Shown: piece by piece, positions 18,185 through 58,937 of the stretch | Numbering within the stretch: position 1 is the stretch's first letter | Layout: every line of letters starts with the position of its first letter | NCBI GenBank assembly: GCA_960531495.1 | Contig: OY482847.1 | Coordinates: 258,528 to 322,527 of the forward strand | DNA: 64,000 nucleotides | From: Zeus faber | Taxonomy: Eukaryota; Chordata; Actinopteri; Zeiformes; Zeidae | Direction: 5' to 3' | Made by a program: the position numbers and the translations under genes | Notes under the pieces: generated by a model | The model's database searches: none | Told to the model about the DNA's origin: nothing | The model's input: the letters and a program-made list of their open reading frames with translations, nothing else

Positions 18185-21100
18185 ATGTGCTGCCGTGTGC
18201 CGAGCTCCAGGGCTCTGCTGCCCCAGCTGCTGCGGCCACAGGGTGGGTTCTGGACCGGCAGGGAGGCCCGCTGGGGATTCCTGACATCCTGTCGGCAGCG
18301 GGCAGGGGGAGCGGACCCCCAGGCTCCGTCCCTTCCCAGCCAGGCCCGTGTGGTGATCTGTGGGGGTGGCATCGTGGGAACCTCTGTGGCGTACCACCTC
18401 GCCAAGCTAGGATGGACTGAGGTCGTACTGCTGGAACAGGGGAGGTCAGACACCCAGTCGTAATAGTTAGGTCCCGACCCATATGTCTTGTCACCCACAC
18501 CTAGTTTAAGGGAAAAAATTTCGAAATCCGCCATTGGCTGCCAGTATTTGTGTATATTTTTTTATATATCATAATAAAATTGAATCTATATTAACAAAAT
18601 ACATATTTAGAATAATAATTGTATTCAAATAAAACCACTTTAAGCTGTTGAAATAATTAACTCAAATAACAGTAAGAAGTGATTCTTATCATAAAAAAGC
18701 ACTGGCACTCGGTCCTTTATGACATAGTACACATACGTTTAACAAATCCGAAATCAATCAAACAATTCCAGGACAGATCAGGGCCTGTCCCCTTAAGACA
18801 TTGCATTGTGGGTAATGTAGGAGCTCTGTGAGGATGAGAGCCCATACACTTGTTGCGTGTGCTGACCTTAACCTTAAAATTTGAAATTTACCTTAGGAAG
18901 AGGTTATGGGTGGGAGTCATGTCTAAACACTACAGAGTGACCGAGTCCATGCCGCACACTGGACACGGTCCAACTGGACATTCTCAATCAGAATCTCTAC
19001 ATTTATAGTAAATAATATGATGACATCATAAAGTATCTTACAGTAAATCTCGTCTCCTTCACTTGAGAACAGACGTATGACGTCTGACCAACTGTATATT
19101 TTGGGTCAAAGTTGCTCGGTTTTTCGCTAATATCTGCTCCGTATGTGGATCGATGTGGATGAAATTTAGACCACGAGATCCTTGTGACATAGTGGTTAAA
19201 ACAAAACCTCAACTGTCTATCTAGCCTACGCCAAAGTATGTCTTCCAGATAGTTTTAGCTGGGTTGGACATATTTCGGATTGGTGTACTCGCACGTCAGT
19301 CTTTTTTTTTTTTTTCGCCATGAAATTTATTGAACCGTGTCTGTAATATCCATCTAAATTTGGTCGGTTTTTCAATATTATCTTCACCGTATGTGGATTG
19401 GGTTGGATGAAACTTCAACCATGAGTGTTTTGTGACTGCGCAGTTCAAACAAAACATAAACCATGTTCATGTGTTATGCAGAAGTTGGTTTTCCAGATAG
19501 TGTTAGGCTTCAAATTTCAGAGAATATTTCCAAATTTTTCCTCTAACAATGGGGTTCCAGCCCTGCAGGCTCTACCCCTAAATAAAGCTGCAGGCAGTAA
19601 TACACAGGGTCCAGTTTAGTTGTGTTGGGTGTGTTTTACAGTTTCCCAGGTTCTCTGAAACACAGCACGATTTTCCGAGTTTACTTGAACCCAGCATGGG
19701 CTTCACCTAGTCACGCGGAGCAACCACAATGCGGTCTACACGCCTCAACCCTCCTGTCTTTAAAACAACTGTCCATGTTATCTTGTAAAGCAGAACTTGT
19801 CACTGTTAGAACTCACGTGTTGTTTGTGGAAATAGAGCTGCACTCTCAGTGATAGACAGGTGACCTTTTGGTGCTGGTTAATGATGACATAATGATGCAG
19901 TGACCCCTAATATGCAAACCACTGCACGAATGTACTTTAAATTATAAAATAAATATTATAAATACTTTAAATCCTAAATATAATATTAGAGAAGTTGCAT
20001 CATAATGAATGTGGGCACGGTTCACTGACAAATGAAGGAACTGAGACATTTGGCCAGTTGGAGTGTGAGTGAGCTTTTTCCTCTGCCGCTGTTGTTGTTA
20101 AATCAGTGCAACAGTGAAGTCCAGACCTTACTAAGTGCTTGTGATTTTAGAACAAGCGTGCAGATCTGACGACACCCTCATTAAACTGGACTATAGGGTG
20201 TGGGTGGTTCTGCAGGATGTGGATGGTGGTGCAGGATGTGTTGCTGCAGGGTGGTACAGATTGTGGGTGCTCACAGTGTCTCTGGGGGCAGGTTGGGTGC
20301 AGGGACAACCAGGCTCTGCGCCGGTATCGTCAGCGTGGCCAAGCCCATCTCCATCGAGTGCCAGATGGCGGACTACTCCAACAGCCTGTACCTGCAGCTG
20401 GAGCAGGAGACTGGCGTTAGCACAGGTACCACATTAACACGAGTTCCAGATTAGCACAGGTTCCATGTTAGCACAAGTACCAAGTAAGTACAGGTACCAA
20501 GTTAGCGCTGGTACCACGTCTGCAAGGGTACCATGTCAGCACAGGTACCAAGCTAGCACGGGTACCAAGTTATCAGGGGTACCAAGTTATCAGGGGTACC
20601 ACGTTAGCACTGGTATGATGTCAGCACCGGTAACAAGGAAGCACGGGTACCAAGGTAGCATTTACATTACATTTACATTTAGTCATTTAGCAGACGCTTT
20701 TATCCAAAGCGACTTACAAGGGAGAATAACATTCAGCTACATTGCGACAGAGATTGGTGTAACAACAACATTCGTGTAACAATAAATACTGCAAGGTGGT
20801 GCTATTGTAGGTTAGGACAGGAGGTACTCACTGAAGAGCTGGGTCTTCAGGTGCTTCTTAAAGACAGAGAGGGAGGTCCCCGCTCTGGTCATTTTTGGCA
20901 GCTCGTTCCACCAACGTGGAACTACAAATGAGAATAACCTGGATTGCCGTGGCTGTATGGCCGGCAGAGCCAGGCGACGCTCATTTGACGAGCGCAGCAT
21001 CCGGGGGGCAACATGTGCTCTTACAAGAGCATTTAAGTAGGCGGGAGCATTCCCAGCAATCACTCTGTAGGCCAGCATCAGAGACTTGAACTTGATGCGG

Positions 21101-23265
21101 GCGGCTACAGGTAACCAGTGGAGCTCGATGAGCAGCGGAATGGGTATCACGTTAGCAAGGGTACCAAGTCAGCACGTGTACCAAGTTAGCATGGGTACGA
21201 CATAGCAAGCATAATGCAGCCAGGTTTATAATATAAATACGAACAACAAGACCCTAACGTAATACGTGTGTATATTTTAGTTAGTGTGTATTATATGTGT
21301 ATGACAGGTAGCACTGTGTGTATTTCAGGTAGTACTAAGTGTTTTACAGATAGTAATGTGTGTATTTCAGATAGTACTGTGTGTATCTCAGATAGTACTG
21401 TGTGCATTTTAGACGGTACTGTGTGTATTTCAGATAGTACTGTGTATTTCAGGTAGTATTGTGTGTTTTTCAGATTGTATTGTGTATTTCAGGTAGTACT
21501 GTGTGTTTTTCAGGGTATGTCCAGACTGGCTCTCTTTGTCTAGCCCAGAACCAGGACCGCTTTCTGTCCCTGAAGCGCCTCGCGTCTAGACTCAGGTTAG
21601 GGACAGTTTGAGGCTTTGAACTACACAGTGACAAGCTGCTGACAAACTACTGACACACTACTGACAAGCTGCTGACAAGCTGCTGACACTCTACTGACAA
21701 ACTGCTGACTCACTACTCACACACTATTTACAGACTACTGACAAGCTGCTGACACACTACTGACAAACTGCTTACACACTATTGAAAAATTGCTGACACA
21801 CATCTCACACACTACTCACACACTACCGACAAGCTGTTGACACACTTCTGACACACTACTGACAAACTGCTGACAAACTGCTGACAAACTATTGACAAAC
21901 TATTGACACACTGCTGACACACTGCTGACACACTGCTGACACACTGCTGACAAACTGCTGACAAACTACTGACAAACCACTGACACATTACTGACACACT
22001 GCTGACAATCTATTGACACACTACTGACGCACTACTGACACACTGCTGACACGCTACAGACACGCTGTTGACACACGACTGACACACGACTGACAAACTG
22101 CCGACAAACTGCTGACACGCTACTGACACGCTACTGACACGCTTCTGACACTCTTCTGACACGCTGCTGACACACTACTGACACAATGCTGACACAGTAC
22201 TGACACATTGCCGACACATTGCCGACAATGCTGACACAATGCTGACACAATGCTGACACAATGCTGACACAATGCTGACACAATGCTGACACAATGCTGA
22301 CACAATGCTGACACACTACTGACACAATGCTGACACACTACTGACACATTGCCGACACTACTGACACAATGCTGACACACTACTGACACACTACTGACAC
22401 AATGCTGACACACTACTGACACAATGTTGACAGGATCTGGGCCCTAGCCTCATTACAACCCCCCCCCCCATTAACCCCCCCACCCCCCACAGGGTGATGG
22501 GTATTAGCTGTAGCATCATGAAGCCTAAGGACATAGCGAAGCTCCACCCTCTGGTTAACATCCATGACCTGGTGGGGGCGCTGCACCTCCCTGGAGACGC
22601 CGTCATTTCTCCCCCTGATGTCAACAGAGCGCTGGCTGTGGCTGCAGCAGGACAAGGTCAGTCCAAGCTGGTGCAAGCTGGTGCAAGCTGGTCTGGGCTG
22701 GTCATAGCTGACCAGACTATTCCAAGTGTAGCGGGGTTCATTCTGCGTAGTGTATTGTGAATTGAGACACTATGAAGACTGGGTAGATGATGGTGTATTG
22801 ATTAGCATCTGCTGGAATCTGTATTAGAAGAATATTGACACAATGATTAATATACAGGTCACTCATCAGGATGCTCTACTGCGCCTGTTATTCACCAACA
22901 ATACTACTCTCAATACAGGACAGCGGTGGAAATCTTGTAAACTGTGCAGCTCTCACCATAGAAAACCACTGGGCCACAACATGTGCAGAGAATACCTGAG
23001 AATGTGTGTGTGTGTGGTCCAGGGGTCCAGATCCTGGAGCGTACCACCGTGCAGCAGGTGGTGGTTGAGAAAGGTCGTGTGACGGCGGTGGAAACGGACC
23101 GCGGCTCCATCCAGTGCCAGTACTTTGTCAACTGTGCTGGGCAGGTGAGTCCAAGCGAAATTCAGTCCTTCTGATCCACTACTGATCAGATCATAGTTTC
23201 TTCCGTTCCAGACTCCACACGTTTCTTTAAAATCAGAATAAAATATGTCTAAAAATTTGAATATT

Positions 23266-23338
<73 letters not shown>

Positions 23339-26300
23339 TAGTGGGGGTACGAGCTGGGCCAGGCCAGCGAGGTAAAGGTCTCGGTTCCTCTTCACGGCTG
23401 CGAACACTTCTACCTCCTCACCAAACCTCTGCAGGACCCGCTCCCAGCCAGCACCCCAGGTCTGGACCTTCTAACCCCCAGGTTCTTACTTCTGGGTTTG
23501 AAACCCCAGGTTCTATCCCCCGTGTTCTAACCCCGGGTCCGAGCCCCCGGGTCCGAGCCCCCGGGTCCGAGCCCCCGGGTCCGAGCCCCCAGGTCCTAAC
23601 CCCCAGGTCCAAACCCCCAGGTCTTAAGCCCCCAGGTCCAAACCCCCTAAAAAGCTGATTTATTCACATTTAGCTTTAAATCTGATGTTTTTTTAATCAG
23701 ATGATTTCCCTGCACAGAGTGAAACTGTCTGTCTGTCTGTCTGTATCTGACTGTCTGTCTGTGTGCAGTGGTGATGGACATGGACGGCCGGATCTACGTG
23801 CGCTCCTGGAACGGAGGTCTTCTGTCAGGAGGCTTCGAGAAGAACCCCAAACCTATCTTCACTGAGGGGAGGAACCAGCTGGAGATCCAGAACCTGCAGG
23901 AGGACTGGGACCACTTTGGTAGGAGGGGGGAGGAGAGGAGAGGAGATGGTGGGGGGGGACTGTCAAAGGAACCAGCTGGAGATCCAGAACCTGCAGCAGG
24001 ACTGGGACCTCTTGGACAGGAGAGGAGAGTGGGGGGGGGGGGGGGTAGCGGAGCAGAGTGTACAATGATTATTATGAACTCTGTAATTGCCAAATAAGAA
24101 TTCTTAATTTCGATGTTAAGTACTGGAGTGTCTGTATATGTGTATACTGTGTACTGTGTGTGTAGAGCCCATGCTGAGTGCCCTCCTAAGGCGCATGCCC
24201 GCGGTGCAGGCAGCAGAGATCCAGCAGCTGGTGAACTGCCCTGAGGCCTTCACCCCAGACATGCACTGTCTGATGGGGGAGAGTCCAGGCCTGCAGGGCT
24301 ACTACGTCTTGGCTGGGATGAACTCCTCTGGACTGGCCCTGGCTGGAGGAGCCGGGAGGTCTGTCAGCCTGTCTGTAAAGGAGGTTTAGTGTTTAGAAAG
24401 TGTCGTCTGTAGGAGCCTTAAATGTCTAGGTGGTGTCGTCATGTCACATGAACTTCACATGAAATGGTTTGTGGTTGCCGTGGGGATGGTCGCCTAGCAG
24501 CTTGTGTTGTGCAGGTTCCTGGCTGAGTGGATGACCTATGGTTACCCCACGGCCAATGTGTGGCCACTGGATATCAAGCGCTTTGGGAACCTGCAGAGCA
24601 GCCGGACCTTCCTGAGGCACCGGGTCATGGAGGTCATGCGTGAGTCACTAACCAGTACCACTAACAAGTACCCAGAGTCACTAACTAGTACCACTTACCA
24701 GTACCCAGAGTCCCTAACCAGTACCATTTACCAGTACCCAGAGTCCCTAACCAGCAGCCAGTGCCCCTCTCCAGCACCCACAGTTCCTGCAACCAGAGAG
24801 AATTTAAGTCTTTGTTTTTGTCTTTGTCGACCTGCTTGTCTGTCACCCTCTCTCTCACTCCTACCTTCACCTGCCCCCCCCACTCCCCACCCCCATCTGT
24901 CTCTCCACCTGTCTCTGACTCTCTCCACCTGTCTCCCCTCCACCCGTCTCCCCCTCCAGCCCTGCTGTATGAGCTGAAGGTCCCCCGCTGGGACTTCCAG
25001 ACGGGTCGCCAGCTGAGGACCAGTCCCCTATTCGACCGCCTGGACACCCAGGGGGCGCGCTGGATGGAGAAGCACGGCTTTGAGCGCCCAAAGTACTTTG
25101 TACCTCCAGGGAAGGGTACGAGTACTCAGAGTATCAGAGTACTGACAGTACTCAGAGTACTATTGATCTTCTTTACTGTCAGAGTTCACTGTGAAGATTA
25201 TTGATCCAGATCAATATCACGTCCAATTACCGCCAATCATTAAATATGATAATTGGATCACTACAGTTCCCAGTTTGGTACTAGACTGGTAACCAAAATG
25301 GTGTTGTCCTCAGACCTGCCATCCCAGTTTGGTACTGGAGTGGTAACCAGTATGGTGTTGTCCTCAGACCTGCCGGCCCCGTTTGGTACTGGACTGGTAA
25401 CCAGTATGGTGTTGTCCTCAGACCTGCCGTCCCAGTTTGGTACTGGACTAGTAATCAGTATGCATTTACATTTACATTTAGTCATTTAGCAGACGCTTTT
25501 ATCCAAAGCGACTTACAAGGGAGAATAACATTCAAGCTACATTGCGACAGAGATTAGTGTAACAACAACATTCGTGTAACAATAAATACTGCAAGGTGGT
25601 GCTAAGTATTTGTAGGTTAGGACAGGAGGTACTCACTGAAGAGCTGGGTCTTCAAGTGCTTCTTAAAGACAAAGAGGGAGGTCCCCGCTCTGGTCATTTT
25701 TGGCAGCTCGTTCCACCAACGTGGAACTACAAATGAGAATAGCCTGGATTGCCGTGGCTGTATGGCCGGCAGAGCCAGGCGACGCTCATTTGACGAGCGC
25801 AGCATCCGGGGGGCAACATGTGCTCTTACAAGAGCATTTAAGTAGGCGGGAGCATTCCCAGCAATCACTCTGTAGGCCAGCATAAGAGACTTGAACTTGA
25901 TGCGGGCGGCTACAGGTAACCAGTGGAGCTCGATGAGCAGCGGAGTGACATGTGCCCTCTTTGGCTGGTTGAACACCAATCGCGCCGCCGCATTCTGTAT
26001 CATCTGTAGTGGCTTCACCGCACAGGCCGGCAAGCCTGTTAAGAGGGCGTTGCAGTAGTCGAGACGGGACATCACCAAGATTTGTACCAGCAGTTGAGTG
26101 GCATATTGGGTCAGGTACGGCCTGACTTTTCGGATGTTGAGTAGTGCGAAGCGGCAGGACCGGGAGACGGCGGCAACATGGTCCGAGAATGTCAGTTGGT
26201 CATCAATAATGACACCAAGATTCCTTGCAGCCTTGGTAGGAACAAGAGATAGAGAGTCGATTTTAATATCAATGTTGTGATAAATACCTTGTTTGGCCGG

Positions 26301-29159
26301 GAAGACCAGCAGTTCCGTTTTCGCCAGATTTAGTTGAAGATGATAATCCTTCATCCATGTGGATATGTCAGCGAGACAATCCGAGATCCGCGTCGAGACA
26401 GTAGGGTCGTCGGGCGGGAAGGACAGATAGAGTTGAGTATCATCCGCATAGCAGTGATATGAAAAGCCATGTGAGCGGATGATCGGGCCCAGTGAGGTGG
26501 TGTATATGGCAAAGAGGAGGGGTCCTAGCACCGAGCCTTGGGGCACCCCTGTGGTGAGGTTGTGAGGCACAGACAGCTGGCCTCGCCATGTCACACTGAA
26601 CGAGCGCCCAGTAAGGTAAGATTCGAACCAGGAAAGTGCACTGCCCGTTATGCCCATACTTGAGAGTATGGACAGGAGTATGCAATGATTGACAGTGTCA
26701 AAAGCAGCTGATAAGTCTAGCAGAATGAGAACCGAGGATTTGGCAGCAGCTCTAGCAGTTTTTAAGGCCTCTGTCACAGACAACAGGGCTGTTTCGGTGG
26801 AGTGACCACTTTTGAAGCCAGATTGAAGTGTATCAAGAAGGTTGTTTCTTGACAGGTACTCTGAAACCGCTAGAGAGAGACCGCCCTCTCTAAGGTTTTG
26901 GAAAGGAATGGGAGGAGAGAGACCGGCCGATAGTTTTCTACTTGATTGGGATCGAGTGAGGGTTTTTTGAGCAGTGGTGCGACCCGAGCCGCTTTGAAAG
27001 CAGAAGGGAAAGTGCCGGAAGTTAGGGAAGAATTAATCACATGTGTGATTGCCGGGGTGATAGTCGGTGATATGGCTTGAAGGAGGTTGGATGGGATCGG
27101 ATCTAGCGGACAGGTAGTAGGACGGCTACATGTTAGTAGTTTAGATACCTCACTTTCAGCGAGGGGGGTGAGTATGGTGTTGTCCTCAGACCTGCCATCC
27201 CAGTTTGGGACTGGTTACCGTTATGGTGTCGCCCTCAGACTTGCCGTCCCAGTTTGGGACTGGTAACCAGTATGGTGTTGTCCTCAGACCTGCCGTCCCA
27301 ATTTGGGACTGGTAACCAGTGGGGTGTTGTCCTCAGACCTGCCGTCCCAGTTTGGGACTGGTAATCAGTATGGTATTGTCCTCAGACTTGCCATCCCAGT
27401 TTGGGACTGGTAACCATTATGGTGTCGCCCTCAGACTTGCCGTCCCAGTTTGGGACTGGTCATCAGTATGGTATTGTCCTCAGACTTGTCGTCCCAGTTT
27501 GGGACTGGTAATCAGTATGGTATTGTCCTCAGACTTGCCGTCCCAGTTTGGGACTGGTAATCAGAATGGTATTGTCCTCAGACCTGCTGGCCCTGGACCA
27601 GAGCAAGACGTTCTACAAGCCGGACTGGTTCGACATCGTGGGTGAGGAGGTGAAGTGCTGCAAGGAGGCCGTCTGCGTGGTGGACATGTCCTCCTTCACC
27701 AAGTTTGAGCTGAGTGTGAGGACCCGTCTGTCTCTCTGAGTTGTCTGCCCCTCTGAGCTGTCCGTCTTTCTTAGCTATCTGTCCCTCTGAGCTGTCGGTC
27801 TGTCTGAACTGTCTGTCCCTCTGAACACCCTGTCATTCTCTCTGAACAACTTGGCTGCCTCTCAAATCATACACTGCTTTAAGATATTACTGTTTCTCCC
27901 TCCCTCCCTCCCTGGTCCAGTCTTCTGGGGATCAGGCTCTGGACCTGCTCCAGTACCTGTGTTCTAATGACCTGGACGTCCCCGTGGGACACGTGGTCCA
28001 CACTGGGATGCTGAACCAGCGAGGGGGCTACGAGAACGACTGCAGCGTGGTGAGACTCAGCAAGTCAAGGTGAGCTGGTCCGGGAGATAGTCCAGGGGAG
28101 CCGGCCATGGCGAGCTGGTCCAGGAGTTAGTCCAGTTAGGGTGGTCTAGGTGAGCTGGACCAGGAGTTAGTCCAGGTGAGCTGGTCCAGGAGAGCTGGCC
28201 CAGAGTTATTCCAGGTGAGCTAGTCCAGGTGAGCTTGTCCAGGAGTTAGTCCAGGTGAGCTGGTCCGGGAGTTCGTCCACGTGAGCTGGTCCAGGAGTTA
28301 TCCCATGTGAGCTTGTCCAGGAGTTAGTCTAGGTGATCTGCTTGGGGAGTTAGTGCAGGTTAGTTGGTCTGGGAATTAATCCAGGTGAGCTGGTCGGGGA
28401 GTTAGTCCAGGTGAGCTTGTCTGTGTGACGTGTGTGACGGAATACTGTATACGTCGTATTCGCAATACTGAATAATTGATTGAGGTTCATGCCATAACAA
28501 ACTGCAATTCAAGATGAAGTACAACCAAATTAATTGTTTGTAATGGAATACACCTTTGTGTTATCATGGAAACAAATCTGGCTTTGACTGTGAAATATAA
28601 CAATTATTGGAGACCACCTTTCATTTGGAATCTGGCTTATTATCTAAGGACTAGTACAAATGTATGTAACTGCCTTGGCAAACTAACTAACTATGTCTGC
28701 GGAATATTGTTTCCCGACGTTGTCTGTAGGTGTACACCAGTCCTTATTAATATAATGCGCACTCCTCCACCTTTTCTCTGAGTAAAGGTCTGCAGTCCTG
28801 TCTGCTCTGTAAACAGAGAGGCCTGCTAGCTCAATAGCCACATTGGGAATGATGCTGTCCAGCCAAGTTTTTGTAATGATTGTCACACAGTTATATCCAT
28901 GTTGTGCAAAGTAATCCTGTCTTATTTCATCCATCTTGTTGACCAGTAACCAGGAGTTGCTCAGGGGCAGAGACTTTGCAGGGCTGGTCTGTGCGGGTTA
29001 GCCGTTAGCCCGATGTCCTGTGTTGCGCAATGATGACACAGTGTCTGTGACCAATCAGTAGTCGGGACCAATTACGCAGTGACGATTGTCTGTGACCAAT
29101 CAGTAGTCTGCATTGTTTCCACGTAATATTTTGGTCTTAAGAATAACAATCTTTAATCG

Positions 29160-29190
<31 letters not shown>

Positions 29191-32100
29191 TTGGATGGTG
29201 ACCGGTGAAATGAGGCCTCTGTGTTTAACCCATCCTGGCTTGTCCTTCCTCCGGGGGCACAGCCAGGAGCAGTGGGCAGCATTCGTGGGCCTGGTGATGA
29301 GTGTCCATCGATGAGGATGATGGGTGCATGTTTTTGGTGGGGATCCTTACTGACGTGAGGTGGAGGAAACCCCATGTGAGCACAGGGAGATCATGCAAAC
29401 TCCACACAGAAAGGCTCCTATTTGGGAGATAACCTGCCTGAGGTGCCAAGAGCGCCCCAGGCAGGAATCGAACCCAGGACCTTCTTGCTTTGAGGCAAAT
29501 ATTGATCGATATGGGTCAAACTTGGACGACGGCGTATGTGGACTGTCCCGAAAACAACTATCTATCATTCATGTCTGCCTGTGGGTTTCACGGTTTCTGA
29601 GCAAAGCAATGGGGTTCTCTACCTTTGGACTGGACCTCTAATTAGACAAAAGCAAGTTAAAGGTGATGATATATTTTTTCAAGGCAATAATATAAAAGCA
29701 ATGTTCCAGGTACACATGTTTCTTTCATATTAGAGATGGAGTGGGCCTTGATGCACAGGGAGTGGTGATGGTGATTCTGCATGTTATCCCAGGGATCTGC
29801 CCCCAAATTCCCACTGAAATGGCTGTTCCTTTTTCCCCAGTACGTACAACTCTAAAGAAAACAACTGCCCTTGATTACTCTCTCCCCATATTAAACACTG
29901 GGACAGAGTTCAGCCAAAGAAACACTGCCACCTAGTGTTGTGGTGGCAGAACTAGTCTTACAGGAGGTTCAAGTTCAAGAGATTATTTGTCACATACATA
30001 TACATACCGTCATACATATATGCAGTAAAATGTCATGACACCCGGTGATTACGCACAATAAGCTCTAAAAATACTAAAAAATACCTAAATGTGCGTAAAA
30101 CGACAAGTGGCTCGTCTAGTAACGGGAAGGTTGCCGGTTCAATCTCCGGCTCCTGGTAGTGTGCTTAAGTGTGCTTGAGCAAGACAATTCACCACAAACT
30201 ACTCCTGATGAGCCTAGCAAGGCTCCTCCATCACTGTGTGATTAATGGATTAATGTAATGAATTATTATTATTAGTGTATTTCCATGTGTGTTTCTTCTG
30301 CAGTACCAGCTCCTATACTGTGTACTTGTCAGTACCGTATACTTAGTCTGTGCGTTTCTTTGCAGTTTCTTTATCATCTCCCCGACGGACCAGCAGGTCC
30401 ACTGCTGGTCCTGGATCAAGAAGCACATGGGAGAGGATCAGCAGCTCCACCTGGAGGACGTCAGCTGGAAGTACACAGGTCTGCTCCCTGCACTACAGGG
30501 ACTGCTAACTGCTATCAGTACACAGTCAGTACACTGGCAGTACACAATTAGTACACTGTCAGTACACAGTCTGTACACAGTCAGTGCACTATAATTACAC
30601 AGTGCACAGTCAGTACACAGTCAGTACACAGTCAGTACACAGTGCACAGTCAGTGCACAGTCAGTGCACTGTCAGTGCACTGTCAGTACACAGTCAGTGC
30701 ACAGTCAGTACACTGTCAGTACTCAGTGCACAGTCAGTACACTGTCACATTACTTAATTGATGCTTTTGTCCAAAGCAACTTCCAATCAGTGTGACAGTA
30801 CATTTTGTCCCAGTATCAAACCACTGTATATACTATATACTGTATATCACTGTGTATCTGTATATACCGTATATCACTGCATCTGTATATACTGTATATC
30901 ACTGTATCTGTGTATAGTATATACTGTATATCACTATGTAGCTGTACATACTATATGCTGCATATCACTGTATTTGTATATACTGTGTATCAATGTATCT
31001 GTATATACTGTATATCCCTGATACAATAATATATACTATATACTGTATATCACTGTGTATCTGTTTATACTGTATATCAATGTGTATCTGTATATACGAT
31101 ATACTGTATATCACTGTATATATGTAGACCTGCACAAGGCCGGAATGGACCAGACCATTGGCAAGAAGCTGGGTGAGAAGGAGACAAATGTTGGCGCGAT
31201 TATTCGAAAATGGAAGAAACACAAAATGACTGTCAATCTCCCTCGGTCTGCGGTTCCACACAAGATCTCACTCATGGGATATCAATGATCATGAGAAAGG
31301 TGAGGGATCAGCCCAGAACTACACAGGGGGAGCTTGTTAATAATCTCAAGGCAGCTGGGACCACAGTCACCAAGAAAACCATTGGTAACACACTACGCCC
31401 ATAAGGTCCCCCTCCTCAAGAAAGGACATGTACAGGTCTGTCTGAAGTTTGCCAATGAACACCTGAATGATTCAGAGAATGCTTGGGAGAAGGTGATGTG
31501 GTCAGATGAGACCAAAATCGAGCTCTTTGGTATCGATTTGACTCACCGTGTTTGGAGGAAGAGGAATTCTGACTATGACCCCAAGAACACCATCCCCACC
31601 GTCAGCATGGAGGTGGAAGCTTTATGCTTTGGGGGTGTTTCTCTGCTAAGGGGACAGGTCGACTTCACCGCATCGAGAGAAAGATAGATGGGGCCATGTA
31701 CCGTGAAATCCTGGGTGACAACCTTCTCTCAGCCAGGACACTAAAAATGGGTCATGGATGGGTCTTCCAGCACGACAATGACCCAAAACATACAGCCAAG
31801 GCAACAAAGGAGTGGCTCAAGAAGCACATGAAGGTCATGGAGTGGCCTGGCCAGTCTCTGAACCTTAATCCTATGGAAAATCTGTGGAGGGAGCTGAAGC
31901 TTCGAGTTGCCAAGCGACAGCCTCGGAAAAAGATTTGGAGAGGATCTGCAAAGAGGAGTGGTCCAAAATTCCTCCTGAGATGTGTGCAAACCTGGTCATC
32001 AACTACAAGAAACGTCTGACATCTGTACTTGCCAACAAGGGTTTCTCCACCAAGTGCTAAGTCATGTTTGGATAGGGCATCAAATACTTATTTCACTCAA

Positions 32101-35100
32101 TGAAATGCAAAATAATTTATATATTTTATTTAATGTGATTTTCTGGATTTTCTTTTTGATATTCTGTCTCTCACTGTTATAATAAACCTACCATAAATTA
32201 CCACTAAAATTATAGACCGTTCATTTCTTTGTCAGTGGGCAAGCTTACAAAATCAGTGAGGGATCAAAAATTTATTTCCTCCACTGTATACTGTATCACT
32301 GTTTATACTGTATATCACTGTGCATCTTTATATACTGTATATCACTGTATCTGTATATACTGTATATCACTGATACAATAGTATATACTCTATATACTAT
32401 ATATCGTGCATCTTTATATACTGTATATCACTGTGCATCTGTGTATATACTGTATATCACTGTATATCACTGCATCTGTATATCACTGTGTATCTGTATA
32501 TAGTGTATATCAATGGGCGTCTCTATATACTGTATATCACTGTGTATCTGTGTATACTGTATATCACTGTGTATCTGTATACAGGTACTCCTCACTTAAC
32601 AACCTACCTATTTAACGGCTGTTCAGACTTACGACCAGCTCTCTGACTGGTCTGTATTGTACACTGTGTACAATACCAAGCATCTCATCTCATCACCCTT
32701 TATATATACTATATATATCTCAGTCTCAGTCTCGTTCCCAGAGTCTGTCAGTATTCACTACACTAGTGTTCGCAATCACCACACCCCCTTTCCGTGAAAA
32801 TATACGATATATACTATATATATACTATATACATTATATAATATATAGTGTATATAGTATATATAAAAATATATATCGTGTTTATACATATATAGTGTTT
32901 ATATTATTATTTACACTATATATACTATATTCACTGTATATACACTATATATACCAGCCACGTGCCCCCTTACTGTGAAATAGCATAATATATATTTTTT
33001 TGGGCTGCTCCGGTTAAGGGTCACTACAGCAGATAATCTGCTTCCAATACCTTCCGTTCTGCGCATCCTCCTCCCTTAGACCAACCGCCTGCATGTCCTC
33101 CCTCACCACATCCATAAAGCTTCTCTTTGGCTTCCTCTTTTCCTCTTGCCTGGCAGCTCCACCCTCAGCCTCCTTCTCCCAATGTAACTCTCATCTCTCC
33201 TCCACACGTGTCCAAACCATCTCAATCTGGCCTCTCACTTTTCCACCAAACTGTCCAACCTGAGCTGTCCCTGTAATGTACTCATTCTTAATCCTGTCCA
33301 ACCTTGTCACTCCCAATGAAAATCTCAACATCCTCAACTCCGCCACCTCCACTTCATCCACCTGCCTTTTTGTCAGTGCCACCGTCTCTAAACCATACAA
33401 CATGGCTGCTCTCACTACCGTCCTGTACACCTTCCCCTTCACTCTTGCTGAAACCCTTCTGTCACAGATCACTAAGGACACTGTTCTCCACCCACTCCAC
33501 CCTGCCTGTACTCTCTTCTTCATCTCTCTCCCGCACTCTCCGCTGCTTTGAATGGTTGACCCCAAGTACTTAAACTCATCCGCCTTCTCGACCTCCACTC
33601 CTTGCATTCTCAGCTTTTCGCCGCCCTCCCTCCCATTCAGGCACATGTAATCTGTCTTACTCCTGCTGACTTTCATTCCTCTTCTCTCTAATGCTGCCTC
33701 CACTTCTCCAGGCTCTCCTCAACCTGCTCCGTACTCTCGCTACAGATCACAATGTCATCCACGAACATCATAGTCCACGGAGACTCCTGCCTGATTTAAT
33801 CTGTTAACCTGTCCATCACCACTGCAAACAAGAAAGGGCTCAGAGCTGATCCTTGATGCAATCCCACCTCCACTTTGAATGCCTTCGTCACGCCTACTGC
33901 ACACCTTACTACTGTCTGACTCCCCTCATACATATACTGTACCACTCTTACGTACCTCTCTGACACCCCCGACTTCCTCATGTAATACCACACTTCCTTT
34001 CTCAGCACCCTATCATACGCTTTCTTTAAATCCACAAACACAAAGTGCAACTCCCTCTGGCCTTCCCTGTACTTTTCCATCAGCATTCTTAAAGCAAACA
34101 TGTCATCTGTAGTACTCTTTCCTGGCATGAAACCATACTGCTGCTTGCTGATCCCCACTGCTTCTCTTAACCTAGCCTCCACTACCCTTTCCCATAGCTT
34201 CATGCTGTGGCTGATCAACTTTATTCCCCTGTAGTTACTACAGCTCTGTACGTCTCCCTTATTCTTGAAGATCGGTACGAGTACACTTCTTCTCCACTCC
34301 TCCGGCATCCTCTCCCTTTCCAGGATGGTGTTAAACAGTCTCGTTAGAAACGCCACTGCCATCTCATCTAAACATTTCCATGCTTCCCGATGTATGTCAT
34401 CTGGGCAAACTGCCTTTCCACTCTTCATCTTTTTTTAATGCTGTTCTCACCTCATCCTTCTTAATTTGCTGCACCTCTTGATCCACTGTCCCCACTATCA
34501 TCCACTCTTCTCTCCCTCTCATTTTCTTCATTCATCAACTCCTTAAAGTACTCCTTCCACCTTTTCAACACACTCCTCACTAGTCAGCACATTCCCATCA
34601 TTATCCTTCATCACCCTAACCTGCTGTACATCCTTCACATCCTTCCAACCTCTCATACAACTCGTCGTATGCCTTTTCCTTTGCCTTTGCTGAGATCTGG
34701 GGACTGGCTAGGCCACTCCAGGACCTTGAAATGCTTCTTACGAAGCCACTCCTTCGTTGCTCGGGCGGTGTGTTTGGGATCATTGTCATGCTGAAAGACC
34801 CAGCCACGTTTCATCTTCAATGCCCTTGCTGATGGAAGGAGGTTTTCACTCAAAATCTCACGATACATGGCCCCATTCATTCTTTTCTTTACACGGATCA
34901 GTCGTCCTGGTCCCTTTGCAGAAAAACAGCCCCAAAGCATGATGTTTCCACCCCCATGCTTCACAGTAGGTATGGTGTTCTTTGGATGCAACTCAGCTTT
35001 CTTTCTCCTCCAAACACGACGAGTTGAGTTTTTACCAAAAAGTTCTATTTTGGTTTCATCTGACCATATGACATTCTCCCAATCCTCTTCTGGATCATCC

Positions 35101-38100: not shown

Positions 38101-39986
38101 GCTGGAACAGTCCAAAAAACAGCAAAAACAGTTTTGCTGATGTTCAGGTGGAGGCTGTTGTCCTGGCACCAGAGTGACAGGTCAATCACCTCATTGCGGT
38201 AGGCCTTCTCATCGCCGTCGGTGACCAGGCCCACGACAACGGTGTCGTCAGCAAACTTGATGATGGTGTGTACAGGGAGTACAGTAGGGGGCTGAGGACG
38301 CAGACCTGGGGGGGATCCTGTATTCAGGGTGAGGGAGCTGGATATGTGCTTCCCCACCCTAACCACCAGGGGCCGATCTGAGAGGAAGTCCAGGATCCAG
38401 GCACACAGCGTAGTATTCAGTCCCAGGTGCGTGAGCGTGGTGGGCAGTACCTGGGGAAACTGCGTTATCCGTGGATCTGTTCTACTGGTACGTGAACTGC
38501 AACGGGTCCAAGGTGCGGGGGAGGGAGGCACAGATATAATCCTTAATCAGCTTCTCGAAACACTTCATGACCACCGAGGTGAGGGCCACCGGACGGTAGT
38601 CATTCAGGCAGGTTGGAGAGGCGATCTTCGGGACAGGAACGACGGTGGACCTCTTGAAGCAGGACGGGACCACTGATTCAGCCAGGGAGATGTTGAATAC
38701 CGTAGTGAAGACTGGGGCTAACTGGTTAGCACAGGTCTTCAGTACTCATCCAGATATGCCATCTGGGCCTGCAGCTTTCCTGGTGTTCACCCGTATCAGA
38801 NNNNNNNNNNNNNNNNNNNNNNNNNNNNNNNNNNNNNNNNNNNNNNNNNNNNNNNNNNNNNNNNNNNNNNNNNNNNNNNNNNNNNNNNNNNNNNNNNNNN
38901 NNNNNNNNNNNNNNNNNNNNNNNNNNNNNNNNNNNNNNNNNNNNNNNNNNNNNNNNNNNNNNNNNNNNNNNNNNNNNNNNNNNNNNNNNNNNNNNNNNNN
39001 AATGTGCAAAGTCAACCAGAGCGTCGGCGCAGGCGACCGCAAGGGGCGGCGCCACTATCACACTATATCCGCATTAGGGTGGGGGGTACCGTATGTGCAG
39101 CTGTCCTATCACGTGAGCGTCTTCAGATCACGCAACGTATTTGTCATTGATGGACAGCCGATATATTCAATGAGTCCAAATTATTAGAAAATGTGATTTC
39201 TCTGATCCGGATATCAACTCTAAATGATCGAACATCCATCGCAATTCTTCGTAAGTTTTGCTGTGGATACCGCTGTAAACTGTGGTATCTGGCACCAAGA
39301 CGTTTGAGGCAGATCCTTTAGTCCTGGAAGTTGTGAGGTGGGGCCCCATGGATCGGGCTTGTTGTTCCAGCACATCCCACAGATGCTCCATCAGATCGGA
39401 ACCTGACCCCGCCCATCCACATGATGTAGAAGAAAAGGTAATTCATCAGACCAGACCACCTTCTTCAATGGTCAAGTTCTGACGCTGACGTGTCCATTGT
39501 AGGTGCTTTCAGAGGGGACAGGGGTCAGCATGGACATTCTGAGCACTCCCATACGCAGCAAGGTGCCATGCACTGTGTGTTCTGACCCCTTTCTATCATA
39601 GCACCATTCACTTTTTCACCACTTTGCGCTACAGTAGTTCTTCTGTGGGATCCAACCAGACGGACTAGACTTCACTCCCCTTATGCATCAATGAGCCTTG
39701 GGCCCCGTAACCCTGTTGCCAGTTCACTGGTCGTCCCGCACTTTTGGTAAGTAGTTACCACTGCATAGCGCGAACACTCCACAAGACCTGTGGTTTTGGA
39801 GATGCTCTGACCCAGTCGTATAGCATCACAATGTGCTCCATGTCAAAGTGGCTTAGATCCTTACGCTGCTTCAACACATCAACTTCAACAACTGACTGTT
39901 CACTTGCTGCCTCATATATATATATAATATATAACACTATATATATAATAATATATAACACTATGTATATATAATAATATATAACA

Positions 39987-40048
<62 letters not shown>

Positions 40049-43623: not shown

Positions 43624-44995
43624 TCACATCCTGCGGGCCTTGCGGGGGCGGCACCCATTGTGCGGCACCGGCGTGTTGTCGCTGATGGACACCACCTCTA
43701 CTCCACCCATCGCCAGCCCCTTGATGGCAGACTGCAGGAAACAGAAATACCACCATCACTTCCTCTGTACTCTCTAGTACACAGTCTCATGATGGTTGGC
43801 ATTGTTACTCACCAGGCGTCCGGGTCCCAAACCACTGACGACGACTCGGACATAGGCCACGCCCTTCAACGTTGCTTTCTGAGCGACAGAAAAAAACTGG
43901 TTCAGCTCCCAGAATGCATCTGTCTGTTAAACTGCAGCATGCTGGGATGCAGTTACCGTGGCAGCAGAGATGCCAGCTGTTTGGGCGGCAATGGGCGTCG
44001 ACTTCTTGACGTTCTTGAATCCTTCGGTTCCACAGGAAGTTCGCACAAGGGAAAGACCGGCGCTGTCAGTCACCTGGACGTGGGTGCTGACAGGAAGTGA
44101 CATGGTTACAATGTGTTGACCGGAAGTGACATGGTCACAACGTATGCTGAAGGGGCTGAGGAGGAGGTTTTTCTTACTTGTTGTATGTGGCTTTGATGTG
44201 AGCGATGTGCAGCTGGTCAAAGGTGAGCCCCGCCCACTGCAGGGCACCGCCCTCTCCTGGCAATGGAGGGAAGTGACTGGAACCAGGAGCAGAAAGACCA
44301 AGATTATTCCAGAGATATGAATACTTCTCCCAAATGTCTGGAATGTGATTATTTGTACATATTGTATTGTAATATTCCTCACCATGAGGATCATGAACGA
44401 GTACAATGTCATCTTCTCCGTCTGATTTTATACAAAACATTTCATTTAGTCATTCATATTTTTAATAATTAAAGCATGTTTGAAGTTTCCACCTGAACTG
44501 TTTAGTTTCTGCAGCAATGTTCTCCTGTGGAGCCGCCGCTGAACTGGAGGAGCAGGAGGCGCGAAGCAGCCTGAGGAGCACAGAGCAGGGTATTCACAGG
44601 TTACGTGTGTGATAAAATAACGCATACTCGTAGTTGAAGATGGGCTCTGTCCTGCTGCGGCTAGAGCGCCTCTTGTGACCAAGTGTGGTACTTGTGACCC
44701 GTTTCAGCACAAACTTATTACAGTTTGTTTCCCACAGTAAAGTGGGTTGGGTTCTTTTATGAACCATAAACTGTTCTGCAGCCCAGAATGTTCGGCTTGT
44801 GGATGAGTACAGTTTCGTTTCACATGTTGCACCTTGTAACATCTGTTTAATGATCAATCCAAATCAATCATTGTGTTGGGTTTTGAAGGTTATTCTGTTC
44901 TAAACATCAGACTATTGAGATGAAAACACAGTTTAAACTCACAAAGTGTCTCCAGCTGCTTTATTAAAAGCAGATTTTAGTCCAAGCCGCAGCAT
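43624..44995 (-). CDS. mrps11: Mitochondrial ribosomal protein uS11m (MRPS11)
   Basis: MRPS11 is a protein of the mitochondrial 28S subunit, in the bacterial S11 family that contacts small-subunit rRNA at the platform. Exons on the minus strand: 44995-44943, 44570-44493, 44276-44178, 44086-43957, 43878-43813, 43731-43624. The total is 534 nt, 177 aa (human 194). Exon 1 gives a short presequence, [17 protein letters not shown], with basic and hydrophobic residues. The S11 core follows: [57 protein letters not shown], and the end [19 protein letters not shown]. Exon 1 rests on phase, donor and presequence character; exons 3-6 are beyond doubt. It is head-to-head with mrpl46, as in human. Confidence 0.95.
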
Positions 44996-49600: not shown

Positions 49601-51108
49601 CTGGTTCTGACCGGACTCTGTTCCAGCCGACGTGGAGCAGAACCTGTCCTCCTGTGAGCGTCGCCTGGACCAGCCGCTGGTGCTGCTTGCTCAACAGCAC
49701 ACAGGCAGCGAGCGGCAGTGGCTGCTTCCCCAGAGTGACTGGAGGGACGGAGAGACTTTGAGGGAGACGGCACAACGAGCCCTGGACGCCCTGCCAGGTA
49801 GACCTCTGTCAATCTGTTGACCTCCATCAGTCTGTACACCACCATCAGTCTAGACCTAGATTCAAGAGTTTTTTTCGTCACATACATATACATACTTTTA
49901 TACATATTTGCAGTGAAATGTCTTTGCAACGCTCACAGAGATTATGCACAATAGTTACTAAATCGAACATTATAGCTAACCTCATTCCTACTTAGCAACT
50001 AACTGAAACTAACTTGTTCCTAAAACACAGTGCAGTTAGTGAATAGAATAATATCAATAAAATAAGACTCAAAGGTAATACAAAGTGGGGGTACAAAATA
50101 GAAGTGAAGGGAATAGAGTTATTTATATGGGATAGGCTATATGTATATACAGATATGTGCAGTAAAGTGTATGTGAATAAAGTGAGTATGGAGATGTACA
50201 GTATAAAACACTACTACACAGCAATACAGTAACACAGAACAGCAATACAGCGCAGTATACAGTAATCCAGAACAGTGACACAGTATGCAGTACAGTATGC
50301 TACATACAGTACAGTAAGGTAGTGGGGCCTATGTGTGTGGCTCAGTGAGGACCCCTGGTGAGGTCAGCATTGACAGTTCTAATGGCTCGATGTAGAGTCT
50401 CAGTCTCTGTTCTCGCTGTGGGGCTGCGGAGGCTCTTGCCCGATCGCAGCAGCTGGAACAGTCCGTTGTTGGGGTGATGTGGATCCTTCATGACCCTGCA
50501 GCTCTGCTACTACACCTCCTGGTGTATAAGTCCTGCAGGGGGGGGGGGGGGGGGGTTGGTAGTTCCAGTGGTACACTGGGCTGAACGCACCACCCTCTGC
50601 AGGGCCCGCCTGTCCTGAGCAGTACAGTTCCCAAACCAGGCAGGGATATTGCCTGTCAGGATGCTCTCCACCGCTCCAGGGTAGAAGGACTTGAGGATCC
50701 TCACCGAGACTCTGAAGACCTACATCAGTTTAGACCTCCATCAAATTGTAAACCATCAGTCTCGACCCCCATCAGTCTGTAGACCTCAATCAGTCTGTAG
50801 ATGATCAGTCTAGACCTCCATCAGTCTGTGGACCTTTATCTGACTCTTTGTGCCCTTTGTTCTCAGTGGGAGGGCTCCAGACCAGGTTCCTGGGCAGTGC
50901 CCCCTGTGGTGTGTATAAGTACAAGCTTCCCTGCTCTGCTCGGAACAACCACATCATGGGGGTCAAGGTGTTCTTCTTCAAGGCTATCCTGAGCGGCAGC
51001 CACCCCGCCCCGCAAGCCGACGCCCTCTGGCTGACCAAGGAGGAACTGCATGACTTCCTGAAGCCGCCCTACTTGGAGAAGGTTCACGCCTTCTTCCTCC
51101 ACCTGTGA
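46693..51108 (+). CDS. mrpl46: Mitochondrial ribosomal protein mL46 (MRPL46)
   Basis: MRPL46 is a large-subunit mitoribosomal protein with a Nudix-like fold. Exons: 46693-46869, 48483-48681, 49627-49797, 50867-51108. The total is 789 nt, 262 aa (human 279). The N-terminus (MAARSVWRLSQRVNRTGTRL) is a mitochondrial presequence. Family blocks: RLVAAACLQRLPVI, LSDHELRLLDDAERL, VLAQDLEDAWDQRLQMF, CERRLDQPLVLLAQQ, WLLPQSDWRDGETLRETAQ, FLGSAPCGVYKYKLP, MGVKVFFFKAIL and WLTKEELHDFLKPPYL. All phases agree and no defect is seen. Intron 1 carries a SINE and a hAT-like element; intron 3 carries a LINE inside a minisatellite. Two CTTCCGG-type sites lie upstream near 46450-46480. Confidence 0.97.
47600..47890 (-). 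mobile_element. tRNA-derived SINE in mrpl46 intron 1
   Basis: On the minus strand the head has GCCTCACAGCAAGAAGGTCC and box-B-like GGTTCCATTCC, then the core GTGTGGAGTTTGCATGTCCT. Same family as 29140-29500. Confidence 0.88.
47941..48445. mobile_element. hAT-like non-autonomous element in mrpl46 intron 1
   Basis: It starts TAGGGATGTGCC and ends GGAACATCCCTA. The flanks GTTTCAGC and GTTTCGGG agree at 6 of 8 positions, as for an old 8-bp target duplication. It ends 37 bp before exon 2. No transposase. Confidence 0.7.
48990..49470 (-). mobile_element. Rex1-like LINE 3' UTR in mrpl46 intron 2
   Basis: It starts with TTCAAGATTCAAGATTCAAG repeats (the LINE's TTGAATC tail), then the usual 3' UTR of the family. 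It is 5'-truncated before the coding region. Confidence 0.85.
49798..50866. repeat. Minisatellite built on the exon 3 donor of mrpl46, split by a LINE
   Basis: Exon 3 ends GCCAG|GTAGACCTCTGTC. Units AGACCTCCATCAGTCTGT of about 18 bp follow (49798-49858) and resume at 50715-50850 up to the exon 4 acceptor. A Rex1-like LINE (-) with its tail at 49858 lies between. Confidence 0.88.
49858..50715 (-). mobile_element. Rex1-like LINE, 5'-truncated
   Basis: The minus strand encodes VRILKSFYPGAVESILTGNI, PAWFGNCTAQDRRALQRVV, then a poly-C run at 50539 that disrupts the frame, then the HHPNNGLFQL region and 3' UTR. The tail carries TTGAATC. Confidence 0.88.
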
Positions 51109-52150: not shown

Positions 52151-52154
52151 TCCT

Positions 52155-52365: not shown

Positions 52366-52499
52366 CCTATATAAAACATCATTCAAATAGTTGATCATGT
52401 GCATTTTTCTCTTAACAAAACCCCATGTTTTTGGTGAGTGGTCCTTACTGATGTTACGTGAAGGAAACCCCATGTTTTTGGTGGGGGTCCTTGCTGATG

Positions 52500-56269: not shown

Positions 56270-56306
<37 letters not shown>

Positions 56307-56354
56307 GTCTGTCTGTCTGTCTGCCTGCCTGTCTGTATGTCTGTCTGTCTACCT

Positions 56355-56390
<36 letters not shown>

Positions 56391-56742: not shown

Positions 56743-58937
56743 GTGAGTTACAGTCTGACGCTCTATCACTACAGTCTGATGCTCTATTTCTACAGTGTGA
56801 CCCTCTATCACTATAGGCTGGCCCTCTATCACTACACTCTGATGCTGTATCACTACCATCTGACCCTCTATAATTACAGGCTGACACTGTCAATACAGCC
56901 TGACACCTTATCACTACAGTCTGACACTCTGTCACAAAAGTCTGGTGCTCTATCACTACAGGTTGATGCTTTATCACTACAGTCTGACGCTATATCACTA
57001 CAGTCTGACGCTGTATCACAACAGTCTTTCGCTCTATCACGACAGTCTGACGCTCTATCACTACAGTCTGACCCTCTATCGCTACAGGCTGATGCTCTAT
57101 CACTACCGTCTGACACTCTATCACTACAGTCTGACCCTCTATTACAACAGTGTGACACTCTATATCTACCGCTACATCCTGACGCTATATCACTACAGTC
57201 TGACACTGTATCACAACAGTCTTTTGCTCTATCACTACCCTCTGACACTCTATTACTACAGTCTGATGTTCTATCACTACAGTCTGACTCTGTCACTACA
57301 GTCTGACTATCACTTCAGTCTGACCCTCTATCATTACAGGCTGACACTGTCACTACAATCTGACTCTTTATCACTACAGTCTGACACTATCACTACAGTC
57401 TGACCCTCTTTTGTTACAGGCTGACCCTCTATCACTACAATCTGGTTCTCTATCACTACAGTTTGATGCTTTAGCACTACAGTCTGACCCTATATCCCTA
57501 CAGTCTGGCATTCTATCACTACAGTCTGGCACGCTACCATTACAGGCTTACACTCTGTCACTACAATCTGATGCTCTATCACTACAGTCTGACGCTCCAC
57601 CACGACAGTCTGACACCCTATCACTCCAGTCTGATGCTTTATCACTACAGTCGGACGCTCTTTCACTACAGTCTATCGCTCTATCATTACAGGCTTACAC
57701 TCTATCACTACAGTCTGATGCTCTTTCACTACCGTCTGACCCTCTATCAGTACAGGCTGACACTGTCACTACAGTCTGACCCTCTATCACTACAGTCCGA
57801 TGCCCATCACTACAGTTTGATGCTTTATCACTACAGTCTGACCCTATATCACTACAGTCTGCCACTCTATCACAACAGTCTTTGGCTCAATCACGAAAGT
57901 CTGACCCTATATCATTATAGGCTGACCCTCTCACTACAGTCTGATGCTCTATCATTAGAGCCTGATGCTCTCTCACTACAGTCTGAACCTCTACTATTAC
58001 AGGCTGACCCTCTATCACTACAGTCTGCCACTCTATCACTACAGTCTGACTGTATCACTACAGTCTGACCCTCTATCATTACAGGCTGACCCTCTATCAC
58101 TACAGTCTGATCCTCTATCATTACAGGCTGACACTGCCACTAGAGTCTGACTCTTTATCACTACAGTCTGACACTCTATCACTACAGTCTGATGCTCTCA
58201 CTACAGTTTGATGTTTTATCACTACAGTCTGACCCTACATCACTGCAGTCTGCTGCTCAATCAGGACAGTCTGACCCTCTATCACTACAGTCTGACGTTC
58301 TATCACAACAGTCTGACACTCTATCATTACAGGTTTATACACTTTGTCACTACAGTCTGAAGTTCTATCACTAGAGTCTGATGCTCTATCACTACAGTCT
58401 GATGCTCTATCGCTACAGTCTGACTCTATCATTACAGGCTGACCCTCAATCCCTACAATCTGACGCTCTATAACTCTTTTATCACAGGCTGACACTCTAT
58501 CACTGCAGTCTGACCCTCTATCACTACATTCCGATGCTCTATCACTACAGTCTGACACTCTATCACTACAGTCTCACCCTCTATCATTACAGGCTGACAC
58601 TCTGGCACTATGGTCTTTCACTCTATCTCTATAGTCTGATACTCTATCCCTACAGTCGGACCCTCTATCATTACAGGCTGTCCCTATATCACTACAGTCT
58701 GACCCTCTATCATTACAGGCAGACACTCTGTCACTACAGTCTGAAGCTCTTTGACAGCAGGCTGACACTATCACTACAGTCTGACCCTCTATTACTACAG
58801 TCAGACCCTCTATCATTACAGGCTGACACTGTCACTACAGTTTGACCCTTTATCAGTACAGTCTGACACTATCACTACAGTCTGATGCTCTATCACTGCA
58901 GTCTGATGCTCTTTGACAACAGTCTGACACTCTATCA

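What the first reader, a model, noticed from the sequence alone, without database searches (positions are those of the whole stretch)
18185..56760. Intronic minisatellites grown from splice junctions in several neighbouring genes
In pdpr the tandem repeats in introns are not randomly placed. The unit contains the exon-intron boundary for exon 2 donor (TTAGCACAG|GTACCA), exon 3 acceptor (TTTTCAG|GGTA), exon 6 donor (CCCCAG|GTC), exon 7 end, exon 11 acceptor (TCCTCAG|ACCTGC), exon 12 donor (AAG|GTGAGCTGGTCC), probably exon 13 donor, and exon 15 end. Repeats also start within 10 nt of the donors of exons 9 and 16. The same holds for mrps11 exon 4 acceptor (29-bp duplication), mrpl46 exon 3 donor and, more loosely, ntrk3 exon 4 donor. 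What is seen: the shared junction sequences. What is inferred: a process that duplicates DNA preferentially at exon edges, or selection that removes repeats entering exons and leaves edges as seeds. I know of no named mechanism for this.
Basis: partly seen in the sequence, partly recalled or inferred. Interest (0 to 1): 0.8.

Follow-up and report, generated by a model that had tools for sequence, protein, structure and literature searches.

The report
Splice-site minisatellites in fish introns
In a repeat-rich stretch near one end of a fish chromosome contig, several introns are padded with tandem copies of their own splice junction; the pattern is real and matches a phenomenon already described in amphioxus ("mirage" minisatellites), and it does not seem to need a machinery aimed at exon edges.

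Summary
The core observation holds. In pdpr, tandem arrays contain the exon 2, 12 and 15 donors and the exon 11 acceptor, and the exon 7 end is copied once; exons 3 and 6 are partial; exons 13 and 16 fail. Of 52 junctions in four genes, 15 lie within 10 nt of an array (2.4 expected). The locus lies about 0.3 Mb from one end of a 40-Mb contig, in a domain about 20% minisatellite; three interior clathrin genes have about 1% and 0 of 140 junctions near an array. Yet junction-spanning arrays are no commoner than random births would give (9 seen, 9.3 expected); the excess is in arrays that stop beside splice sites (18 seen, 3.8 expected), with no likeness to the exon. Best reading: minisatellites arising freely, tolerated at exon edges because the outer splice site still works. 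No RNA or outgroup introns were available.

The parts
18179..43200 (+). pdpr coding exons 1-17 and their introns (exon 1 18179-18444 ... exon 17 42793-43200)
   Evidence: uninterrupted frame of 891 residues across 16 GT-AG introns; 84% identity to a fish PDPR
20416..20660 (+). 17-bp array spanning the exon 2 donor (exon ends 20425); 10 exonic nt in the first unit
   Evidence: TRF, copies listed, 18 intronic copies, 17 with GT
21142..21198 (+). continuation of the 17-bp array beyond an inserted interspersed element
21296..21513 (+). 21-bp array ending exactly at the exon 3 acceptor; AG repeated, exonic letters not
23504..23647 (+). 14-bp array with CCCCAGGTC-like units, 44 nt after the exon 6 donor; weak likeness to the junction
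23871..24033 (+). exon 7 end (source 23871-23918) and its copy from 23968 in the intron; donor GT lost in the copy
25268..25462 (+). 54-bp array, upstream part of the repeats related to the exon 11 acceptor
27171..27587 (+). 49-bp array running into the exon 11 acceptor (exon starts 27582); 6 exonic nt; all 11 intronic copies (both array parts) keep AG
28063..28421 (+). 26/40-bp array spanning the exon 12 donor (exon ends 28069)
   Evidence: 15 intronic copies, 11 with GT
40890..40962 (+). exon 14 acceptor region: exonic CTGATTGGTCCTC (exon starts 40941) recurs twice upstream in the intron
   Evidence: TRF 40890-40946, copies; residues [12 protein letters not shown] identical in 111 of the 117 homologues aligned there without gap, of 120
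41490..41675 (+). 61-bp unit x 3 spanning the exon 15 donor (exon ends 41531): 42 exonic + 19 intronic nt
   Evidence: residues [18 protein letters not shown] identical in 96 of the 107 homologues aligned there without gap, of 120
44084..44140 (-). mrps11: 29-bp duplication at the acceptor of the exon 43957-44086; 3 exonic nt
49801..49851 (+). 18-bp array abutting the mrpl46 exon 3 donor (exon ends 49797)
56749..58938 (+). 21-bp array abutting the ntrk3 exon 4 donor (exon ends 56742)

Best explanation
These are minisatellites of a repeat-rich domain near a contig end. Short tandem duplications arise all over the non-coding DNA there. When one takes in an exon edge it does little harm, because the outermost copy of the splice site still joins the exons correctly and the extra copies leave with the intron; such an array can then grow by slippage or unequal exchange, so that some introns become strings of copies of their own splice junction. 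This is what was named 'mirage' minisatellites in amphioxus. Copying ran from exon to intron. No process aimed at splice junctions is needed for the spanning arrays; the surplus of arrays that merely abut splice sites probably reflects selection on splice signals and loss of dispensable intron DNA up to them (inferred). Use of the outer site and the growth mechanism are inferred too.
For: Exon-to-intron direction: the residues at the exon 14 and 15 sources are nearly invariant among the 120 best homologues, while the intronic copies of the exon 15 end have changed. Spanning arrays equal the neutral expectation (5 donors vs 4.66, 4 acceptors vs 4.68). Domain effect: stretches of C3 158-422 kb average about 20% minisatellite, interior loci 0-2%; 70 clathrin introns, 0 of 140 junctions near an array at score 50, period 7 or more. 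Use of the outer sites is consistent with the unbroken Pdpr frame and its alignment to orthologues.
Against: The abutting surplus (12 donors vs 1.91, 6 acceptors vs 1.93; donors 12 vs 1.28 even when arrays are barred from the splice signals) is not produced by random births, and its cause is only inferred; the window also has an unexplained donor excess at 21-45 nt (5 vs 1.55, p 0.01). The neutral null assumes that overlap of up to one period into an exon is free. Two of the nine spanning cases rest on 3 exonic nt. Only one contig end and three interior loci were sampled. Introns of neighbouring genes may hide exons that the protein search missed. No RNA, no outgroup introns.
Confidence: 0.62

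Rival explanations
1. An edge-directed mutational process: exon-intron borders, donors above all, are hotspots for tandem duplication (for example through polymerase pausing, R-loops or nucleosome edges), so that arrays are born there.
Against: Spanning arrays are not in excess; abutting arrays carry no trace of the junction beyond their edge; acceptors show no excess within 10 nt in neighbours (3 vs 4.05) and a weak one pooled (10 vs 6.60, p 0.10); coverage by arrays is lower at 1-10 nt than at 81-160 nt inside introns.
Confidence: 0.15
2. Selection and erosion set the edges: unique intron DNA between an array and the splice signals is dispensable and gets deleted, so arrays end up resting against the 5' splice site and against the branch-point/acceptor block.
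For: Pile-up at donor offsets -2 to 10 and, in neighbouring genes, at acceptor distances 21-45 (7 vs 2.02, p 0.0035); several introns are almost wholly array; arrays cover 5.7% of pdpr exons against 22.9% of its introns.
Against: In the window the acceptor pile-up is at -2 to 10 instead (4 vs 0.84), partly made of pyrimidine-rich repeats that could double as the polypyrimidine tract (by eye); no deletion was observed.
Confidence: 0.3
3. Chance likeness: minisatellites of this genome are rich in words that resemble splice sites, so unit-junction similarity is coincidental.
For: The weak cases (exons 3, 6, 13, 16; mrpl46) do not exceed shuffles clearly or stop at the junction.
Against: 42 exonic nt in exon 15, 20 in SLC9A5, 15 in SV2B-like, 10 in exon 2, with close copies.
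Confidence: 0.03

Closest known systems
Mirage minisatellites of amphioxus (Adh, TnC, globin and PGBD5 genes; PMC3087553, PMC3902484, passages read)
   Same: Tandem units (10-72 bp in Adh3, about 150-160 bp in globins) that span an exon-intron boundary, at donors and acceptors; many copies keep AG or GT.
   Different: Here in a ray-finned fish, in several neighbouring genes of one array-rich domain, with one intron almost entirely made of its donor junction; splicing and length variation, examined in amphioxus, are untested here.
Internal tandem repeats at exon-intron boundaries of human segmentally duplicated genes (PMC2812944, passages read)
   Same: Minisatellites (about 30-bp units on average) at exon-intron boundaries.
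   Different: Those alter the structure of recent paralogues and are linked to new introns; here no change of gene structure was seen, though intron positions were not compared with other species.
Intron gain by tandem duplication of splice-site sequence (Rogers model as cited in PMC3087553; potato RdRp case PMC4974935, seen in a search listing with the start of its abstract)
   Same: Duplicated splice-site sequence could supply new splice sites.
   Different: The copies lie inside introns; new introns were not looked for.

Membership tests
mirage minisatellite (amphioxus) | tandem repeat unit contains the exon-intron boundary | tested here: met
   pdpr exons 2, 11, 12, 15; SLC9A5; SV2B-like
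mirage minisatellite (amphioxus) | both 5' and 3' boundaries can be affected | tested here: met
   5 donor and 4 acceptor spanning arrays, two of the acceptors by 3 nt only
mirage minisatellite (amphioxus) | normal splicing at the authentic site despite the copies | not testable with these tools
   no RNA; only the unbroken frame and junction alignments
mirage minisatellite (amphioxus) | length instability between alleles or somatic cells | not testable with these tools
   one assembly
subtelomeric minisatellite domain | array density high near chromosome ends, low inside | tested here: inconclusive
intron gain by tandem duplication | a new intron position bounded by duplicated sequence | not tested
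   intron positions were not compared with other species
   9 seen, 9.34 expected; 10.74 expected under the constrained null

The most novel reading that the evidence does not exclude
Splice donors act as boundaries or birth points for minisatellites in vertebrate genes: in array-rich regions tandem repeats start within 10 nt of the 5' splice site several times more often than neutral birth plus splice-signal constraint predicts, so that exon ends steer where satellite DNA grows, and some introns are re-made as serial copies of their own donor.
Probability: 0.2. Interest if true: 0.72.

Novelty: new member of a known kind. Interest (0 to 1): 0.47.

Why it matters
It shows mirage-type repeats in a bony fish and gives a rate test for them: for arrays that contain the junction, what looked like targeting is what tolerance of random births would give. 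The SV2B-like intron, with 29 GT-bearing near-identical donor copies behind the real one, is a natural experiment for the old question of how the spliceosome chooses among identical 5' splice sites (my recollection is that duplicated-site constructs often favour the intron-proximal site; no call supports that here). Such introns are also raw material for alternative splicing and intron gain. The unexplained pile-up of arrays beside donors can be tested in any well assembled fish genome.

Tried and rejected
Junction-seeding of the abutting arrays: tested by looking for likeness beyond the array edge and not supported. Chance likeness as the sole explanation: rejected for the strong cases. Edge-peaked coverage: the profile is not highest at the junction. 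The simple null (arrays only inside introns) was replaced by a more generous one that allows births across the boundary; under it the spanning arrays are not in excess. Other results against or beside my reading: window donors also exceed expectation at 21-45 nt (5 vs 1.55, p 0.01) and neighbours at 11-20 nt (3 vs 0.80, p 0.04); donors plus acceptors of the neighbours together reach only p 0.051 under the generous null; taken one by one only SLC9A5 donors, SV2B-like donors and FHOD1 acceptors passed p 0.05; clathrin genes have 2 acceptors near arrays at score 30, and 1 donor and 2 acceptors when short-period repeats are counted. Dropped before counting: introns unresolved or under 45% identity at the junction, SLC9A5 2 of 11, FHOD1 1 of 16, ANPEP 5 of 18, SV2B-like 3 of 6, NTRK3 1 of 2, clathrin 4 of 74; exons that the protein search missed are not in these numbers. 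A scripted count for the exon 14 acceptor found no copies because its core was set too long; the copies were read directly. Literature: in the listings (open-licence papers only) I saw no report of such repeats in fish; a zebrafish survey mentions one repeat at an intron/exon boundary among 191 of its classes of 18, 24, 27 or 30 bases (PMC2901318, passage); passages of a Nothobranchius repeat paper were read and not used (PMC2688266). The original amphioxus Adh paper could not be read (ids from recall, not held) and is known here only through the two papers that cite it.
Full report
WHAT IS THERE. The window is G000:C3:258528-322527, that is about 0.26-0.32 Mb from one end of a 40.0-Mb contig of an 803-Mb assembly. 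It holds pdpr (17 coding exons, an unbroken frame of 891 residues, 16 GT-AG introns), mrps11 on the minus strand, mrpl46 and the first exons of ntrk3. Pfam supports MRP-L46, ribosomal S11 and a leucine-rich repeat for the last three; ntrk3 itself is named by likeness to the human protein that I recalled. The Pdpr protein is 84% identical to its best listed match, so the species was not identified.

CHECK OF THE OBSERVATION. TRF lists 149 rows in the window. Using rows with score 50 or more and period 7 or more, 15 of 52 junctions (26 introns, four genes) have an array within 10 nt, 6 of them with at least 3 exonic nt; placing the same arrays at random inside the same introns gives a mean of 2.41 and a maximum of 8 in 5000 trials. 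The nearest-array distances show 15 at 10 nt or less, none at 11-30 nt and 6 at 31-50 nt; 18 junctions lie in introns without an array. The strong cases are pdpr exons 2, 12 and 15 (donors), exon 11 (acceptor) and the exon 7 end; exons 3 and 6 are partial; exons 13 and 16 fail; mrps11 has only 3 exonic nt; mrpl46 and ntrk3 are abutting, not spanning. Coverage by arrays is 17% at 1-5 nt inside introns, 44% at 81-160 nt, and 0.2% at 641-1280 nt; pdpr exons are 5.7% array, its introns 22.9%.

DIRECTION. The exonic halves of the repeats are old. The residues encoded around the exon 15 end are identical in 96 of the 107 homologues aligned there without gap (of 120), and those around the exon 14 start in 111 of 117 (of 120). 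The two intronic copies of the exon 15 end each differ from the exon at several positions and share at least one change. So exon-edge DNA was most likely copied into introns, not the reverse.

OUTSIDE THE WINDOW. Three clathrin heavy-chain genes, located by a protein search and modelled by spliced alignment, lie inside contigs C14, C9 and C7. Their 70 resolved introns (4 more dropped) are 1.3% array, and 0 of 140 junctions have an array within 10 nt at score 50 and period 7 or more; at score 30 there are 2 acceptors (null 0.94), and with short periods included 1 donor and 2 acceptors (nulls 0.38 and 0.39). Fetched stretches of C3 from 158 to 422 kb average about 20% minisatellite (range 1-51% per stretch), the clathrin loci 0-2%. 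The window thus sits in a minisatellite-rich domain near a contig end. Only one end and three interior loci were seen, so the 'subtelomeric' label is likely but not established.

INDEPENDENT GENES IN THE SAME DOMAIN. Names rest on likeness to recalled human proteins (FHOD1 on fish homologues), with Pfam (Na/H exchanger, peptidase M1, sugar transporter) and solved-structure matches (SV2B; Na/H exchangers, nearest NHE3). Donors within 10 nt of an array: 9 of 41, 2.16 expected, 0 of 4000 trials as high; acceptors 3 of 41, 2.12 expected, p 0.36. Two of these genes carry clear junction repeats. In SLC9A5 a 101-bp unit with 20 exonic nt by TRF is repeated downstream of the donor. In the SV2B-like gene (L022:8676-9858, minus strand) a 1160-nt array of a 37-bp unit takes in the last 15 exonic nt and 1145 of the 1183 intron nt; 30 intronic copies are 99% identical to the junction over a 24-nt core and 29 keep GT with a donor score no lower than the real one. 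The alignment to a solved SV2B chain runs through this junction without a gap.

DOES ANYTHING FAVOUR THE JUNCTION? I refined the null so that each array may be born anywhere in the intron or up to one repeat period into either exon. Under it arrays at or within 10 nt of donors are still in excess: window 8 vs 2.49 (p 0.0008), neighbours 9 vs 4.13 (p 0.011), pooled 17 vs 6.56 (0 of 4000); acceptors: window 7 vs 2.47 (p 0.005), neighbours 3 vs 4.05, pooled 10 vs 6.60 (p 0.10). Split by position, spanning arrays are as common as expected: donors 5 vs 4.66, acceptors 4 vs 4.68. What is in excess are arrays that stop beside the splice site (offset -2 to 10): donors 12 vs 1.91, 0 of 4000 trials as high; acceptors 6 vs 1.93, p 0.007. 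Barring arrays from the splice signals does not remove the donor excess (12 vs 1.28; at score 80, 7 vs 1.09). In neighbouring genes acceptor-side edges cluster instead at 21-45 nt, about where branch points usually lie (7 vs 2.02, p 0.0035); in the window donor-side edges also exceed expectation at 21-45 nt (5 vs 1.55, p 0.01), which I do not explain. The abutting arrays show no leftover likeness to the exon: mean identity of the 16 nt beyond the edge 0.438 (12 donor edges) and 0.385 (6 acceptor edges) against 0.464 and 0.465 at 235 and 242 other edges. So the spanning arrays look like tolerated random births, while the abutting ones need another cause; edge-setting by selection on splice signals with loss of unique DNA is my preferred but unproven one.

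HOW IT WORKS. Shown: exon-edge DNA duplicated in tandem; copies kept inside introns; original sites present and in frame; arrays rarer in exons than in introns. Inferred: duplications arise by slippage, short-homology repair or unequal exchange in a repeat-prone domain; those over a boundary are tolerated because the outermost site is still used; arrays then expand and homogenise. If inner copies were used as donors many would shift the frame (20 of the 30 SV2B-like copies and both exon 15 copies), so choice of the outer site should be the rule, but no RNA was available.

COMPARISON WITH WHAT IS KNOWN. [quoted passage not shown] RT-PCR suggests that splicing is not disturbed; clusters are unstable in length; the paper proposes a model for intron gain and calls the origin of the repeats unclear. 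The lancelet PGBD5 paper (PMC3902484, one passage) reports similar repeats in PGBD5 and cites Adh and TnC. A human study (PMC2812944, passages) describes minisatellites at exon-intron boundaries of duplicated genes. The fish case fits the mirage kind; splicing and length instability could not be tested. I saw no fish report in the searches listed under Tried and rejected.

VERDICT. Real, non-random within its domain, and not a new kind of system. The targeted-duplication reading is not needed for junction-spanning arrays. The donor-side pile-up and the SV2B-like intron are the parts worth following.

Noticed in passing
L022:8676-9858 (G000:C3:421203-422385, minus strand): An SV2B-like intron of which 1145 of 1183 nt are tandem copies (37-bp unit) of its own donor junction; 29 of 30 intronic copies keep GT.
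   Followed up: yes
window 20667-21142 and 25466-27170: Two insertions sharing 482 bp at 97.5% identity interrupt the repeats at the exon 2 donor and the exon 11 acceptor; the second seems flanked by AGTATG direct repeats.
   Followed up: partly
window 56253-56469: A CTGT tetranucleotide repeat fills nearly the whole ntrk3 intron 2 (56247-56476), from just after the donor to just before the acceptor.
   Followed up: no
window 23268-23337: A (GT)35 run sits almost directly before the exon 6 acceptor of pdpr (exon starts 23342), where a polypyrimidine tract would be expected.
   Followed up: no
window 55037-55318: A 23-bp array (12 copies, 99% matches) containing CCCCAGGTGCTG lies upstream of the ntrk3 start codon; it may sit at a 5' untranslated exon edge.
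   Followed up: no
window 30822-32581: A TGTATATACTGTATATCA-type repeat in pdpr intron 13 is split by an insertion that looks like a Tc1-like transposon (by eye, not tested).
   Followed up: no
clathrin genes in L023-L031: GTAC donors (C at +4) look common among the resolved clathrin introns (listing, not counted formally).
   Followed up: no
G000:C3:158528-422527: Gene order slc9a5, fhod1, pdpr, mrps11, mrpl46, ntrk3, anpep, mesp-like, sv2b-like (mesp by eye); from memory it joins neighbourhoods that in human lie on chromosomes 16 and 15.
   Followed up: partly
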